A stretch of DNA of 64,000 nucleotides, from assembly GCA_030837965.1 (NCBI GenBank), contig JAUTXP010000047.1, positions 62,001 to 126,000 on the forward strand, written 5' to 3'. Source of the DNA: Acidimicrobiaceae bacterium (GTDB lineage Bacteria; Actinomycetota; Acidimicrobiia; Acidimicrobiales; JAUTXP01). This document shows positions 4,464 to 47,225 of this stretch, in pieces (positions within the stretch are counted from its first letter, which is position 1; every line of letters starts with the position of its first letter). Both the position numbers and the translations under genes were made by a program. The notes beneath the pieces were generated by a model. It had not been told where the DNA came from. It did no database searches and saw nothing but the letters and a program-made list of their open reading frames with translations.

Positions 4464-4500
4464 CATCTTTTCCACAGCACCTGCTGCTGTGGAAAAGATG
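4464..4500. repeat. Family A palindrome, copy 1
   Basis: Sixteen-bp perfect arms (4464-4479 and 4485-4500) flank a 5-nt loop. The core is CTTTTCCACAGCA-N5-TGCTGTGGAAAAG, shared by four other copies in this window. TTTTCCACA occurs once in each arm, facing inward. The copy lies 13 bp after the mscS stop. Confidence 0.9.
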
Positions 4501-18482: not shown

Positions 18483-18517
18483 ATCTTTTCCACAGCAACA
18501 GGTGCTGTGGAAAAGAT
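18483..18517. repeat. Family A palindrome, copy 2
   Basis: Fifteen-bp perfect arms (18483-18497, 18503-18517) surround the loop ACAGG. It starts 7 bp after the amidase stop and 34 bp before the next gene on the same strand. Confidence 0.9.
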
Positions 18518-30665: not shown

Positions 30666-31400
30666 GTGGCTCATCCTCCGTGGCATCTGTCGGGCGAGCT
30701 GTTGGCGGCCATGTTGTGGCGACCCGCCCTTGGTCCGTATCGAGGCCACGGGCTGCCAGGCGGCGTCGACCCGCTGCCCGGTCCAGCGCTGCTTCTGGCC
30801 GCCCACTACGCCGACTCGCCCATCGGCCCATTCTCCGAGTTGGCCGTGGCCGAGCCCGCTCGACTGGGGTTGCGGCCCGGGTTCTGCGTGACAACCTCCG
30901 TGGTCGCCGCGTCGGAGTGCCGGGTCGACTACCGGCTCAACTGGGGCGTGCCCGCCGAGGTGGGGACGCTGTTGTGGGACGTCGACGTGGCCGGGGCGAG
31001 GACCCGGCGGCTCACGTGGGTGGAGCGGGGGATCGTGGTGTCGGGCCGGCCGACCCCAATGCGCACGCCCGCGTGGCTTCCTGTCCGGGGCGTGCAGCGC
31101 CGAGCCGACGGCGCCATCCTCGTGCCCCGGCGGGTGTGGGGCTGGCTCTCCCTCACCCGTGTCTGGGTGGGCGCGCCTGACGACGACCCCCTCGCATGGG
31201 CCGCGGGCGGCCACCTTGGCGGGGTGATGACGGGCATGCGCATGGTCGTCGACCCCGCCCGCCATCCCGCCGGTCTGCTGTCCAGCCTGCGGGCCCCACT
31301 GCAGGCTCCCGGCACCGGTCTGACCGCCTCCGTCGGACGGGAGGCCGCGCCCGCAGCCGCTAGAGTTGCCGTCCCGCGGGCGTATGGCTCAGTTGGTTAG
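30666..31400 (+). CDS. Acetoacetate-decarboxylase-like protein, overlapping tRNA-Val
   Basis: The 244-residue protein has the ADC-like fold pattern: YADSPIGPFSELAVAEPARL, then GLRPGFCVTTSVVAASECRV and YRLNWGVPAEVGTLLW, which align in order with acetoacetate decarboxylase relatives. The Schiff-base Lys of true ADC is not evident, so decarboxylase activity is unlikely or altered. The reading frame runs 23 nt into the tRNA-Val gene and stops at TAG 31398-31400 in its D-arm region. The last residues (AVPRAYGSVG) are therefore encoded by tRNA sequence. Confidence 0.65.
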   Translation: MAHPPWHLSGELLAAMLWRPALGPYRGHGLPGGVDPLPGPALLLAAHYADSPIGPFSELAVAEPARLGLRPGFCVTTSVVAASECRVDYRLNWGVPAEVGTLLWDVDVAGARTRRLTWVERGIVVSGRPTPMRTPAWLPVRGVQRRADGAILVPRRVWGWLSLTRVWVGAPDDDPLAWAAGGHLGGVMTGMRMVVDPARHPAGLLSSLRAPLQAPGTGLTASVGREAAPAAARVAVPRAYGSVG

Positions 31401-41070: not shown

Positions 41071-41101
41071 CTTTTCCACAGCAGCAGGTGCTGTGGAAAA
41101 G
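41071..41101. repeat. Family A palindrome, copy 3 (divergent position)
   Basis: Thirteen-bp arms (41071-41083, 41089-41101) flank the loop GCAGG. It lies between the start of the leftward BNR-repeat gene and the start of the rightward methyltransferase gene, so it is upstream of both. Confidence 0.9.
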
Positions 41102-41737: not shown

Positions 41738-41768
41738 CTTTTCCACAGCAGCATGTGCTGTGGAAAAG
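41738..41768. repeat. Family A palindrome, copy 4
   Basis: Thirteen-bp arms surround the loop GCATG. It sits between the convergent methyltransferase and hydrolase genes, 7 bp after one stop and 4 bp from the other, so a bidirectional terminator function is likely for this copy. Confidence 0.9.
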
Positions 41769-43287: not shown

Positions 43288-43472
43288 GCGTGCTCCTTTC
43301 CCCTCCAAGAACGTGCACAGGGATTCGGCAGGAAGCGGACCAAACCTCCGAAACCAGCAGGAATCGTGCACGTTGCCTGGGCCGTCAAAAAAGCACCAGG
43401 GGAGACTGAGGCTGTCGAGAAATATTGGAACGTCAAAACAAGGCATGAGAGTGACGGAAGGAGCAATATTCC

Positions 43473-43500
43473 TTGACAAACTTCAGAGTTACGTTACCGT
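43473..43500 (+). promoter_or_regulatory. Promoter of the HicA/HTH pair
   Basis: TTGACA (43473-43478) and TACCGT (43495-43500) are spaced 16 bp, a good sigma-70-type promoter. The region 43440-43475 is AT-rich and contains an AAGGA-N7-TCCTT inverted repeat that could be an autorepression operator. Confidence 0.55.
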
Positions 43501-43530
43501 GGCCGGAGTGGGCGTTCCCAGAGGCGTGCC

Positions 43531-43755
43531 GTGGACGAGGCCGAGCTTGAGCGGGCCGCCCTCGATCAGGGCTGGCTGGTCGAGGGCACAAGGCGAGGGC
43601 ACCGGCGCTTCGTTCCGCCGGACCAGACGAGGAGCATCGTGATCGGCAGCGGCACGCCCGGCGACTACCGGGCAATCCGGAACCTGCTCGCGCAGCTCAA
43701 GCGGCAGGGCATGGTGTGGCCGTGGCCGCCGGCACAGGGAGGGTGGAATGGGTGA
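43531..43755 (+). CDS. HicA-family mRNA interferase toxin
   Basis: The 74-residue protein has the HicA dsRBD-like pattern. GWLVEGTRRGHRRFVPPDQ contains the catalytic GHRRF-type His, and TPGDYRAIRNLLAQLKRQGM is the family C-terminus. HicA toxins cleave mRNA and are neutralised by a partner encoded next to them. It starts at GTG 43531, about 30 bp after the -10 box. The next gene overlaps it by 8 nt. Length and motifs are intact. Confidence 0.82.
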   Translation: MDEAELERAALDQGWLVEGTRRGHRRFVPPDQTRSIVIGSGTPGDYRAIRNLLAQLKRQGMVWPWPPAQGGWNG

Positions 43756-44353
43756 ATCCAGCGTCGAGTGGAGCGTGGACATCGACCTCGGCATCGACAC
43801 ATCACAACGCAAAGAGCGGGTCGCCGAGGCGGCTGAGGACCTGCTCGACCTCCTCGCCGACACCGACGCCGACGCCGCCGCGGTCGTGAGTGTCGGTGGG
43901 TCGTCGGTCGGGGTGCGGCTGTCCGTTCGCTCGAAGTCGGCCGCGGCCGCGGTGAAGGCCGCGGTCACGCGAGTCGAACGGGCCGCGGCGGAGGCAGGGC
44001 TGCACCACTCGGGGGCACGCAGGGTCGAGGCGGCAACCGCCGAGTGGCTCGACGCGGCCCTGGCCGAGCCTTCGATGCCGGTCCTGGTCGGCACCTCGGA
44101 GGTTGCCGCCCTGCTCGGCGTCACGCGCCAGCGTGTCTCCGAGCTCGCCCGCGCCGGACACTTCCCTTCGCCGCTGGCGATTCTCGCCTCGGGCCCCGTG
44201 TGGATGGAGACCGCCATCGCCCGGTTCGTCGAGTCGTGGGACCGAGCGCCGGGCCGTCGGCCGATTGCCGACCGGGCCAAGACCCCGGCCGCCGAGCGGA
44301 TCGCGCCGAAGTCAGTCGCACGGGTGCGGCCGAAGCATCGGACGTCGACCTAG
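43748..44353 (+). CDS. HTH-domain antitoxin-like partner of HicA
   Basis: In this 201-residue protein residues 1-100 are an alpha/beta domain (WSVDIDLGIDTSQRKERV then ASVG-type GVRLSVRSKSAAAAV). Residues 110-165 hold an AlpA/MerR-like helix-turn-helix: VGTSEVAALLGVTRQRVSEL followed by ARAGHFPSPLAILASGPVWM. Classical HicB antitoxins have a partial RNase H fold plus a ribbon or HTH; whether the N-terminal domain here is a diverged HicB fold cannot be told by eye. The 8-nt overlap with hicA, in the toxin-first order of HicAB, supports an antitoxin and autorepressor role. Confidence 0.65.
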   Translation: MGESSVEWSVDIDLGIDTSQRKERVAEAAEDLLDLLADTDADAAAVVSVGGSSVGVRLSVRSKSAAAAVKAAVTRVERAAAEAGLHHSGARRVEAATAEWLDAALAEPSMPVLVGTSEVAALLGVTRQRVSELARAGHFPSPLAILASGPVWMETAIARFVESWDRAPGRRPIADRAKTPAAERIAPKSVARVRPKHRTST

Positions 44354-44357
44354 ACGA

Positions 44358-44614
44358 TCACGGCGGTGTCGTGTTGCCGCACCACGACAGCGTCTCGGCC
44401 GCCGCCTCCCGGGTCACCAGGTTGAGTTGGGGCTGGAAGGTGTCGAGTGGCGGACCCGCTCGCACGTGTCGAGGTCGGCGGCCGTGAAGTTGCTCAGGCC
44501 GACGGCCCGGTGGATGGCGGCGATGGAGTCGGCGTCGTCCTGCGGGCCCCCTCCCCCCTGCCACTCGCCGCCGCCGATGGCCCAGGCACCCAGCCCCAGC
44601 CGGGTGATCTCCAT
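44358..44614 (-). pseudogene. Aldo/keto reductase remnant with internal deletion and frameshift
   Basis: ATG 44614 begins MEITRLGLGAWAIGGGEW and continues with QDDADSIAAIHRA, the N-terminus of an aldo/keto reductase. It then jumps directly to VGLSNFTAADLDTCERVRH, normally about 120-130 residues further on. A change of frame then gives LDTFQPQLNLVTREAAAETL and a stop. Active-site Tyr and Lys are in the deleted part. It overlaps no other gene and lies just after the HTH antitoxin gene on the opposite strand. Confidence 0.8.
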
Positions 44615-44891
44615 GTCAGTTGTGCCAGCCGACGGGTCGCCAGTGCCACGTGGCCTCCTTTTCCAGGCACGACTACCGCACCCCTGGTGTCCTCGAATCA
44701 CGCATTTGTGACCTCTTGCCGCCGTTGCCGACCCTCCGCCGACCCCGCGGTCATTCCGTACCGTTCGACCGAATCGGGCGGGCGGCTCTGCGCCCAGGAG
44801 GCCGTACCCGTACAACGGGTAAGGACTATGGATGTCACCGTCCGCGACAAATCACCTTCGGTGAGATTCGAATCCTGCCGATGGCAGCCAC
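44615..44891. other. Gene-free spacer before the membrane GGDEF-EAL gene
   Basis: No protein gene is seen. It contains TACCCGTACAACGGGTA (about 44805-44821, a small inverted repeat) and the hairpin TCACC-TTC-GGTGA with an adjacent T-arm-like ATTCGAATCCTGCC (44852-44879). The promoter of the next gene is probably here but cannot be placed with confidence. Confidence 0.4.
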
Positions 44892-47194: not shown

Positions 47195-47225
47195 CTTTTC
47201 CACAGCAGCAGGTGCTGTGGAAAAG
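47195..47225. repeat. Family A palindrome, copy 5
   Basis: Thirteen-bp arms (47195-47207, 47213-47225) surround the loop GCAGG, identical in arms and loop to copy 3. It sits between two rightward genes, 17 bp before the -10 box of the flippase gene. Confidence 0.9.

What the first reader, a model, noticed from the sequence alone, without database searches (positions are those of the whole stretch)
43473..44353. HicA toxin paired with an AlpA-like HTH partner instead of an evident HicB
An intact HicA (GHRRF motif) is followed with 8-nt overlap by a 201-residue protein whose C-terminal half is an AlpA/MerR-like HTH and whose N-terminal half I cannot place. A good TTGACA/TACCGT promoter precedes the pair. 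The antitoxin may bind the toxin through an uncharacterised domain, or that domain may be a diverged HicB fold.
Basis: partly seen in the sequence, partly recalled or inferred. Interest (0 to 1): 0.5.

Follow-up and report, generated by a model that had tools for sequence, protein, structure and literature searches.

The report
HicA toxin with candidate non-HicB antitoxin
A small bacterial gene that looks like a known RNA-cutting toxin is followed by a gene for a likely antidote that is built on a different fold from the usual antidote, and the same two-gene arrangement recurs in other bacteria, plasmids and a prophage.

Summary
The pair is real: a 74-aa HicA-like gene (GTG, 43531-43755) overlaps by 8 nt a 201-aa gene (43748-44353). 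The toxin model has HicA's order (helix, three strands, helix); in the VIA re-ranking its five best solved matches are HicA, though it scores below Pfam's HicA threshold. The partner is not a HicB: its first 97 residues model confidently as beta-alpha-beta-beta-alpha-beta (ferredoxin-like), followed by a MerR/BldC-like winged HTH. In loci not used for training, 12 of 19 new N-domain+HTH proteins had a HicA-like gene immediately upstream, against 0 of 45 HTH-only relatives; some HicA-like genes are followed by what looks like the N-domain alone. So the N-domain, not the HTH, tracks the toxin. Best reading: a HicA-family toxin-antitoxin module with a ferredoxin-like antitoxin domain plus an autoregulatory HTH. 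It is related to PADLOC's candidate PDC-M06; the parts of the 2024 HicA survey that I read list no such class. Toxicity, neutralisation and DNA binding are untested. In 12 of 24 aligned paired toxins an aromatic residue replaces HicA's catalytic His; the window copy keeps it. The 'good' promoter was not confirmed.

The parts
43413..43478 (.). candidate operator: imperfect inverted repeat TGTCGAGAAATATTG - 36 nt - CAATATTCCTTGACA (13 of 15 complementary), right arm ending in TTGACA
   Evidence: (1 of 300 shuffles of 43380-43530 held such a repeat; region chosen after the fact)
43473..43500 (+). possible weak promoter: TTGACA, 16 nt, TACCGT
   Evidence: the consensus scan found no promoter here
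43531..43755 (+). HicA-like toxin gene, 74 aa, GTG start, GH motif kept; model helix-strand-strand-strand-helix
43748..44065 (+). partner, N-terminal domain (about residues 1-106): ferredoxin-like fold, acidic; candidate toxin-neutralising domain
44066..44257 (+). partner, MerR/AlpA/BldC-like winged helix-turn-helix (about residues 107-170)
44258..44353 (+). partner, basic lower-confidence C-terminal tail (net charge +7) and stop

Best explanation
A type II-like toxin-antitoxin module. The first gene makes a HicA-family protein (dsRBD-like, GH motif kept), expected to cut RNA when free. The second, overlapping gene makes the antidote: its acidic ferredoxin-like N-domain binds the basic toxin and blocks it, and its winged HTH binds inverted repeats at the promoter and represses the operon. 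Shown here: the gene pair, its recurrence, both modelled folds, the tie between toxin and N-domain, and inverted repeats upstream in many relatives. Inferred: toxicity, RNA cleavage, binding, neutralisation, repression, and a role in phage defence or in maintenance of mobile elements.
For: Toxin fold: the five best VIA rows are HicA (1whz, titled only 'hypothetical protein', a HicA homologue from memory, Z 6.2; 6g26 5.8; 5yrz 5.6; 6hpb 5.4; 4p78 4.9), next an unrelated row at 4.3. The profile of divergent toxins also pulls in canonical HicAs (Pfam 76-87 bits) whose neighbours are Pfam HicB_lk antitoxins (3 of 3 tested). Partner: N-domain beta-alpha-beta-beta-alpha-beta. Association in held-out loci: N+HTH proteins 12 of 19 with a HicA-like gene upstream, HTH-only 0 of 45 (p 1.5e-8, rows not independent); third batch 2 of 4 against 0 of 15. 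N-domain-only neighbours of HicA-like genes (profile against profile E 8.4e-7, prob 91.5). Charges: 24 of 24 HicA-like rows of A9 basic (+2 to +9), 23 of 23 N-domain rows of A11 acidic (-7 to -17). Palindrome TTGNC-N3-6-GNCAA upstream with at most 1 mismatch in 19 of 26 pair loci, 3.7 expected. Purifying selection on both genes (dN/dS 0.11-0.22 by NG86 in two pairs of loci). Overlapping reading frames in the window, prophage and N. farcinica plasmid.
Against: No experiment. Orphans exist: 7 of 19 held-out N+HTH proteins have no HicA-like gene detected, and N-domain-only genes also sit in an unrelated-looking operon. HicA-like genes of this branch also occur in 116 phage records; in the one of these that I opened (Baloo) and in DirtyBubble no partner of this type is annotated next door. 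In the Streptomyces plasmids the genes do not overlap but are 82 nt apart. In 12 of 24 aligned paired toxins an aromatic residue replaces the catalytic His. The window's own upstream region has the palindrome only with 2 mismatches. The palindrome was defined on the same sequences, and also occurs upstream of HTH-only genes (10 of 73 perfect, 20 of 73 with at most 1 mismatch). Sequence profiles reach HicA in the PDB only weakly (E 0.04-0.9, mixed with unrelated chains). N-domains from other contexts are acidic too. No complex was modelled.
Confidence: 0.68

Rival explanations
1. A regulatory pair, not a toxin and antidote: the HicA-like protein is a non-cleaving RNA- or protein-binding subunit, and the pair controls gene expression of a mobile element (excisionase-like HTH).
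For: His replaced by Tyr, Phe or Trp in 12 of 24 aligned paired toxins, yet a Tyr-type toxin is under purifying selection (dN 0.049, dS 0.46); in the Adephagia HicA gp91, His-to-Ala strongly abrogates toxicity (PMC11373665, passages; another HicA branch); partner resembles excisionase families (phrog_66, phrog_2620); phage copies without an annotated partner.
Against: The window copy keeps GH; close pairing and opposite charges look like a toxin-antidote pair; canonical HicA pairs are caught by the same profile.
Confidence: 0.17
2. A phage-defence module of the PDC-M06 kind, acting by abortive infection; the antidote also senses infection.
For: Partner matches PADLOC PDC-M06B (2.8e-9); 33 of 39 aligned members, the window's included, match PDC-M06B; a related pair matches PDC-M06A and B together (L012); HicA proposed for defence (PMC10865869, abstract and sections) and one HicA domain validated in defence (PMC13092281, passage; its partner not given there).
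Against: PADLOC candidates rest on gene neighbourhood, as I recall; the window toxin itself does not match PDC-M06A; in the window the pair lies between an esterase-like gene and a GGDEF/EAL gene (my reading of the ORFs), not in an evident defence island. Compatible with the best explanation rather than exclusive.
Confidence: 0.1
3. The partner is a diverged HicB and this is ordinary HicAB class 3.
For: Same gene order and a C-terminal HTH as in class 3 (PMC10865869); phrog_8245 HicB-like antitoxin matches at E 0.38 only.
Against: N-domain topology differs and is confident; no Pfam HicB match up to E 10; the HTH is MerR/BldC-like rather than Xre or RHH.
Confidence: 0.04

Closest known systems
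HicAB class 3 (hicA then hicB with C-terminal HTH), Gerdes 2024 PMC10865869
   Same: small HicA first, larger partner second, N-terminal toxin-binding domain expected and C-terminal HTH, autoregulation expected
   Different: N-domain is ferredoxin-like, not partial RNase H; HTH is MerR/BldC-like
PADLOC candidate PDC-M06 (PDC-M06A + PDC-M06B)
   Same: partner matches PDC-M06B; HicA-like plus N-domain+HTH order; a related pair matches both parts (L012)
   Different: window toxin matches PADLOC 'HicA-like', not PDC-M06A; window partner matches PDC-M06B over residues 102-179, that is the HTH
M. abscessus prophage prophiGD91-4 genes 36/35, annotated toxin/antitoxin (MW584206; PMC8092301, passages)
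   Same: same two-gene arrangement, 4-nt overlap, homologous N-domain and HTH
   Different: toxin has Tyr at the catalytic-His position; no family name or mechanism given in the passages I saw
PIN toxin with truncated MerR antitoxin (PMC2701414, passage)
   Same: antitoxin = small N-terminal domain plus MerR-like HTH
   Different: toxin is PIN, not HicA; N-domains not compared here
HicA-like genes of actinophages without annotated partner (Baloo gp88; DirtyBubble gp31)
   Same: same HicA branch (Baloo gp88 matches profile A9, 45 bits; DirtyBubble gp31 aligned in A2)
   Different: no partner of this type annotated next to it in the two regions opened

Membership tests
HicA toxin | helix-strand-strand-strand-helix dsRBD-like fold | tested here: met
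   H3-12 E16-19 E25-28 E37-39 H46-58, mean pLDDT 86.8; top VIA rows HicA, Z 4.9-6.2
HicA toxin | catalytic His after Gly | tested here: met
   window RGHR; not general in the branch: 10 His, 2 with His one column away, 12 aromatic in the 24 paired rows of A7
HicA toxin | Pfam HicA_toxin gathering score | tested here: not met
   13.1 bits, cut-off 27; filed as a HicA-like branch, not as a Pfam HicA
HicA toxin | RNA cleavage and growth arrest | not testable with these tools
   no bench work
HicB antitoxin | partial RNase H fold, beta-beta-beta-alpha-beta | tested here: not met
   model is beta-alpha-beta-beta-alpha-beta
HicB antitoxin | match to HicB sequence families | tested here: not met
   no Pfam HicB family up to E 10; phrog_8245 E 0.38
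HicB antitoxin | presence among fold-search matches | tested here: inconclusive
   the listed rows (50 per search) are a part of the matches and do not exclude it
PADLOC PDC-M06 | PDC-M06B partner | tested here: met
   E 2.8e-9, residues 102-179
PADLOC PDC-M06 | PDC-M06A toxin-side protein | tested here: not met
   window toxin matches only PDLC02910 HicA-like
type II toxin-antitoxin module | two small adjacent co-directional genes, mobile distribution | tested here: met
   8-nt overlap in the window; prophage and plasmid copies, the Streptomyces ones 82 nt apart
type II toxin-antitoxin module | antitoxin binds an operator in its own promoter | tested here: inconclusive
   palindrome in 19 of 26 pair loci; window only a 2-mismatch site and a 13/15 inverted repeat; HTH-only genes carry it too
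type II toxin-antitoxin module | antitoxin neutralises toxin | not testable with these tools
   needs co-expression

The most novel reading that the evidence does not exclude
HicA-like toxins of Actinomycetota have a second antitoxin family unrelated to HicB: a ferredoxin-like domain, used alone (about 85-110 aa) or fused to a MerR/BldC-like HTH, and within this family the toxin's catalytic His has been exchanged for an aromatic residue in about half of the paired members while the pair is still maintained, implying a changed chemistry or a switch from RNase to binding protein.
Probability: 0.5. Interest if true: 0.68.

Novelty: new variant of a known kind. Interest (0 to 1): 0.52.

Why it matters
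A 2009 census described HicA-HicB as a strict pair, not seen in other toxin-antitoxin combinations (PMC2701414, passage), and the 2024 survey lists 14 contexts whose antitoxins are HicB-based apart from the Viperin and SMC contexts (PMC10865869: abstract, find passages, section 4 part 1, section 9). A HicB-unrelated antitoxin for HicA would break that rule, give a simple two-gene test, turn an unnamed PADLOC candidate (PDC-M06) into a toxin-antidote hypothesis, and offer natural His-to-Tyr toxins for asking what HicA does without its catalytic residue.

Tried and rejected
Ordinary HicB: rejected on topology and sequence; I saw no HicB among the listed fold matches, which alone proves nothing. 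AlpA/excisionase HTH alone: HTH-only relatives had no HicA-like neighbour (0 of 45 new rows; 0 of 15), so the HTH does not explain the pairing. Integration at a tRNA: a tRNA-like 3' end at 44865-44890 is single-copy in the genome at up to 3 mismatches and ARAGORN finds only tRNA-Val at 31378 in the window. Consensus promoter and terminator: none. A second copy in the genome: only the window pair at E up to 0.001; with profile A9 three further places at E 0.06-0.99, not pursued. Natural fusion (L022, Nocardia farcinica, toxin and partner in one 298-aa frame): a frameshift or sequencing error cannot be excluded; a mixed alignment for modelling it was misaligned (A6) and not used. Published toxicity of HicA-like proteins: Adephagia gp91 (toxic, PMC11373665) is another HicA branch (profile A9 3.3 bits); Amelie gp73 (toxic, PMC11797047) and the non-toxic orphan LeBron gp82 (PMC13148394) are reported as 68% identical to gp91 and 44-49% identical to the two toxic ones (passages), so none of them tells whether the present branch is toxic. 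Papers searched for a non-HicB partner of HicA; none of the titles and abstract beginnings listed described this pair, but lists were capped, supplements were not read, only open-licence papers are held, and of the 2024 survey the rest of section 4 and Table S1 were not read beyond section 9 and find passages. In PMC10440598 (NetFlax) HicA occurs only in the reference list. The PADLOC 2022 paper does not contain 'PDC'.

Rows dropped before counts: re-fetches of earlier loci were among the rows; one search removed them: N+HTH 3 of 22 (all with a HicA-like gene), leaving 12 of 19; HTH-only 3 of 48, leaving 0 of 45; N-only 2 of 5, leaving 0 of 3; partial matches 2 of 8 with a HicA-like gene. One of the 12 (L114) is weak (E 0.003). 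In the third batch 2 of 6 N+HTH and 1 of 16 HTH-only rows were re-fetches, leaving 2 of 4 and 0 of 15. In one search (29 HicA-like rows; fetched locus L191 gave none): 14 had an A8-profile match downstream within 244 nt, 7 of them pairs known beforehand; 3 had HicB; 6 had an N-domain-like neighbour by eye; 6 had none that I noted, among them two canonical-looking HicAs (L190, L192) whose neighbours were not examined. For seven N-only candidates the leave-one-out E-values were 5.8e-6, 3.1e-4, 0.0039, 0.0089, 0.014, 0.29 and none: two firm, three suggestive, two by eye alone. The His count is over the 24 paired rows of A7; paired toxins outside A7 were L036 and L035 (His by eye in a poorly aligned frame; Tyr), L114 (unclear), and the later L204 and L206 (both His).

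Full report
Anatomy. The window lies in a 3.55-Mb draft genome (88 contigs). At 43531-43755 (+) a GTG-started frame encodes 74 aa with the motif RGHRRF; at 43748-44353 (+) an ATG-started frame encodes 201 aa; the frames overlap by 8 nt and each has a purine-rich site upstream. Third-position GC is 0.88 and 0.87, slightly below three neighbouring genes (0.94-0.96).

The toxin side. Pfam HicA_toxin scores 13.1 bits, below its cut-off of 27; PADLOC 'HicA-like' E 9.9e-9 and phrog_2089 E 3.3e-9 are clear. A sequence profile of 24 relatives reaches four HicA-type chains in the PDB only weakly (E 0.04-0.88), mixed with unrelated chains. A model from those 24 relatives (mean pLDDT 86.8) has the order helix, three strands, helix. 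Foldseek ranks 1whz and 6g26 first with weak E-values (0.15-0.23) and an unrelated chain fourth; VIA gives Z 6.2, 5.8, 5.6, 5.4 and 4.9 (rmsd 2.3-2.9, 56-61 aligned) to 1whz, 6g26, 5yrz, 6hpb and 4p78, then 4.3 to an unrelated protein. Four of the five are titled HicAB or toxin-antitoxin complexes; that 1whz is a HicA homologue is from memory. The profile also retrieves, among 396 genomes of the phylum, canonical HicAs (Pfam 76-87 bits) whose neighbours are canonical HicB (Pfam HicB_lk_antitox, 3 of 3 tested). I conclude that the 74-aa protein is a divergent HicA.

The partner. Pfam gives only sub-threshold HTH_17 (21.5 bits) and no HicB. PADLOC gives PDC-M06B, E 2.8e-9, over residues 102-179. 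A model from 39 aligned sequences (mean pLDDT 89.4, pTM 0.66) shows strand 6-16, helix 22-39, strand 45-50, strand 53-62, helix 65-82, strand 87-97, then helices 98-106, 116-123 and 127-136, a two-stranded wing and helix 154-163. The first part is ferredoxin-like: several Foldseek and VIA rows are ferredoxin-like domains or designs (best Z 8.7; Z values of 7-8 are common and a shared fold shows no function), and its order differs from HicB's. The second part matches BldC (6ama, Z 7.7, rmsd 2.2, 54 aligned). The last 31 residues are basic and mostly of lower confidence.

Recurrence. One Streptomyces cynarae plasmid was hit independently by both proteins, in neighbouring genes beside transposition genes. 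Partner hits in a Nocardia farcinica plasmid, a [Kitasatospora] papulosa plasmid and M. abscessus prophage prophiGD91-4 proved to lie directly after a homologous HicA-like gene; in the prophage the two genes are annotated toxin and antitoxin, in the Streptomyces and Kitasatospora plasmids they are 82 nt apart instead of overlapping. Of seven non-window genomes found with the PADLOC HicA-like model among 296, three carry the partner directly downstream. The named carriers are Actinomycetota; that the window is one too is inferred from the 'same phylum' searches.

What tracks the toxin. I built profiles from loci L001-L069 and tested later loci. After removal of re-fetched loci, 12 of 19 proteins with N-domain and HTH had a HicA-like gene immediately upstream; of 45 HTH-only relatives none had one, of 3 N-only proteins none, of 8 partial matches 2 (Fisher p 1.5e-8, rows not independent). 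A third batch of viral contigs gave 2 of 4 new N+HTH rows and 0 of 15 HTH-only. Searching the other way, from the toxin profile, 29 HicA-like rows include 14 with an A8-profile match downstream (7 known before; one of the 14, L175, an N-domain without HTH), 3 with canonical HicB, 6 followed by a small protein that by eye looks like the N-domain, and 6 without a noted partner. Leave-one-out profile searches support two of seven N-only candidates firmly (5.8e-6, 3.1e-4), three weakly (0.004-0.014), and not two (0.29, none); profile against profile gives E 8.4e-7, probability 91.5. So the constant companion of this HicA branch appears to be the ferredoxin-like domain, with the HTH optional. Charges fit a binding pair: 24 of 24 HicA-like rows of A9 are basic and 23 of 23 N-domain rows of A11 acidic, though A11 includes N-domains from other contexts.

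Against a simple story. Seven of 19 held-out N+HTH proteins have no HicA-like gene detected; one of the 12 positives (L114) is weak, and one L207 gene has at best a very divergent candidate by eye. The branch occurs in 116 phage records; in Baloo, one of them, and in DirtyBubble no partner of this type is annotated next door. Of 24 aligned paired toxins, 10 have His at the catalytic position, 2 have it one column away and 12 have Tyr, Phe or Trp; yet both genes of a Tyr-type pair are under purifying selection (toxin dN 0.049, dS 0.46; partner dN 0.049, dS 0.335). In the HicA of phage Adephagia, His-to-Ala strongly abrogates toxicity (PMC11373665, passages), but that protein is of another branch, and so are the toxic Amelie gp73 and the non-toxic orphan LeBron gp82 by their reported identities (passages). 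So I found no toxicity datum for this branch, and Tyr-type members may not be RNases or may use other residues.

Regulation. Upstream of 26 pair loci the palindrome TTGNC-N3-6-GNCAA occurs without mismatch in 6 (0.19 expected from shuffles) and with at most one in 19 (3.7 expected, largest of 300 shuffles 9); 13 of these 19 begin 22-36 nt before the toxin start that I chose. The motif was chosen after looking at these sequences, relatives share it by descent, and HTH-only genes also have it (10 of 73 perfect, 20 of 73 with at most one mismatch), which fits an operator of the HTH rather than of the pair. Two later pair loci gave 1 and 2 mismatches. In the window the best site has 2 mismatches, but a 13-of-15 inverted repeat ends in TTGACA (43413-43427 and 43464-43478), seen in 1 of 300 shuffles.

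Placement. It works like a toxin-antitoxin pair with HicA as toxin, by inference. By membership the toxin is HicA-like (fold and His met, Pfam threshold not met), the partner is not a HicB (fold tested, not met), and the pair is a relative of PADLOC's PDC-M06 (B met, A not met). The 2024 survey lists 14 HicA contexts; in the parts I read (abstract, find passages, section 4 part 1, section 9) none has a ferredoxin-like antitoxin or a MerR-type HTH. PMC10440598 mentions HicA only in a reference. A PIN toxin with an antitoxin of small N-domain plus MerR-like HTH was predicted in 2009 (PMC2701414, passage), so the architecture has a precedent with another toxin.

Verdict. A real, recurrent, probably functional HicA-family module with a non-HicB partner; a new variant of a known kind; the decisive tests are simple co-expression assays.

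Noticed in passing
window 4468-4496, 18486-18514, 41072-41100, 41739-41767, 47196-47224: A perfect palindrome TTTTCCACAGCA-5 nt-TGCTGTGGAAAA occurs five times in the window (0 expected) and at 163 places in the genome. It holds two inverted TTTTCCACA elements, which recall DnaA boxes (from memory); function unknown.
   Followed up: partly
L070 2719-3015, L071 2765-3058, L072 2412-2699, L073 726-1010 (all - strand): A free-standing relative of the ferredoxin-like N-domain (94-98 aa) lies after a VWA-like gene (in L070 and L071 also an AAA-ATPase-like gene; both named by my reading, no family search) and before a ~150-aa protein; the one of these proteins scanned (L070) has no Pfam match.
   Followed up: partly
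L022 1709-2605: In one Nocardia farcinica contig the HicA-like gene and its partner are read as one 298-aa protein; frameshift or sequencing error not excluded.
   Followed up: no
L004 2922-4231 (- strand): A second gene pair annotated toxin/antitoxin lies directly beside the HicA-like pair in prophage prophiGD91-4, in the opposite direction.
   Followed up: no
window 44414-44815 (- strand): The frame looks like a decayed aldo/keto reductase fragment (my reading of the translation), just downstream of the pair.
   Followed up: no
   Followed up: no
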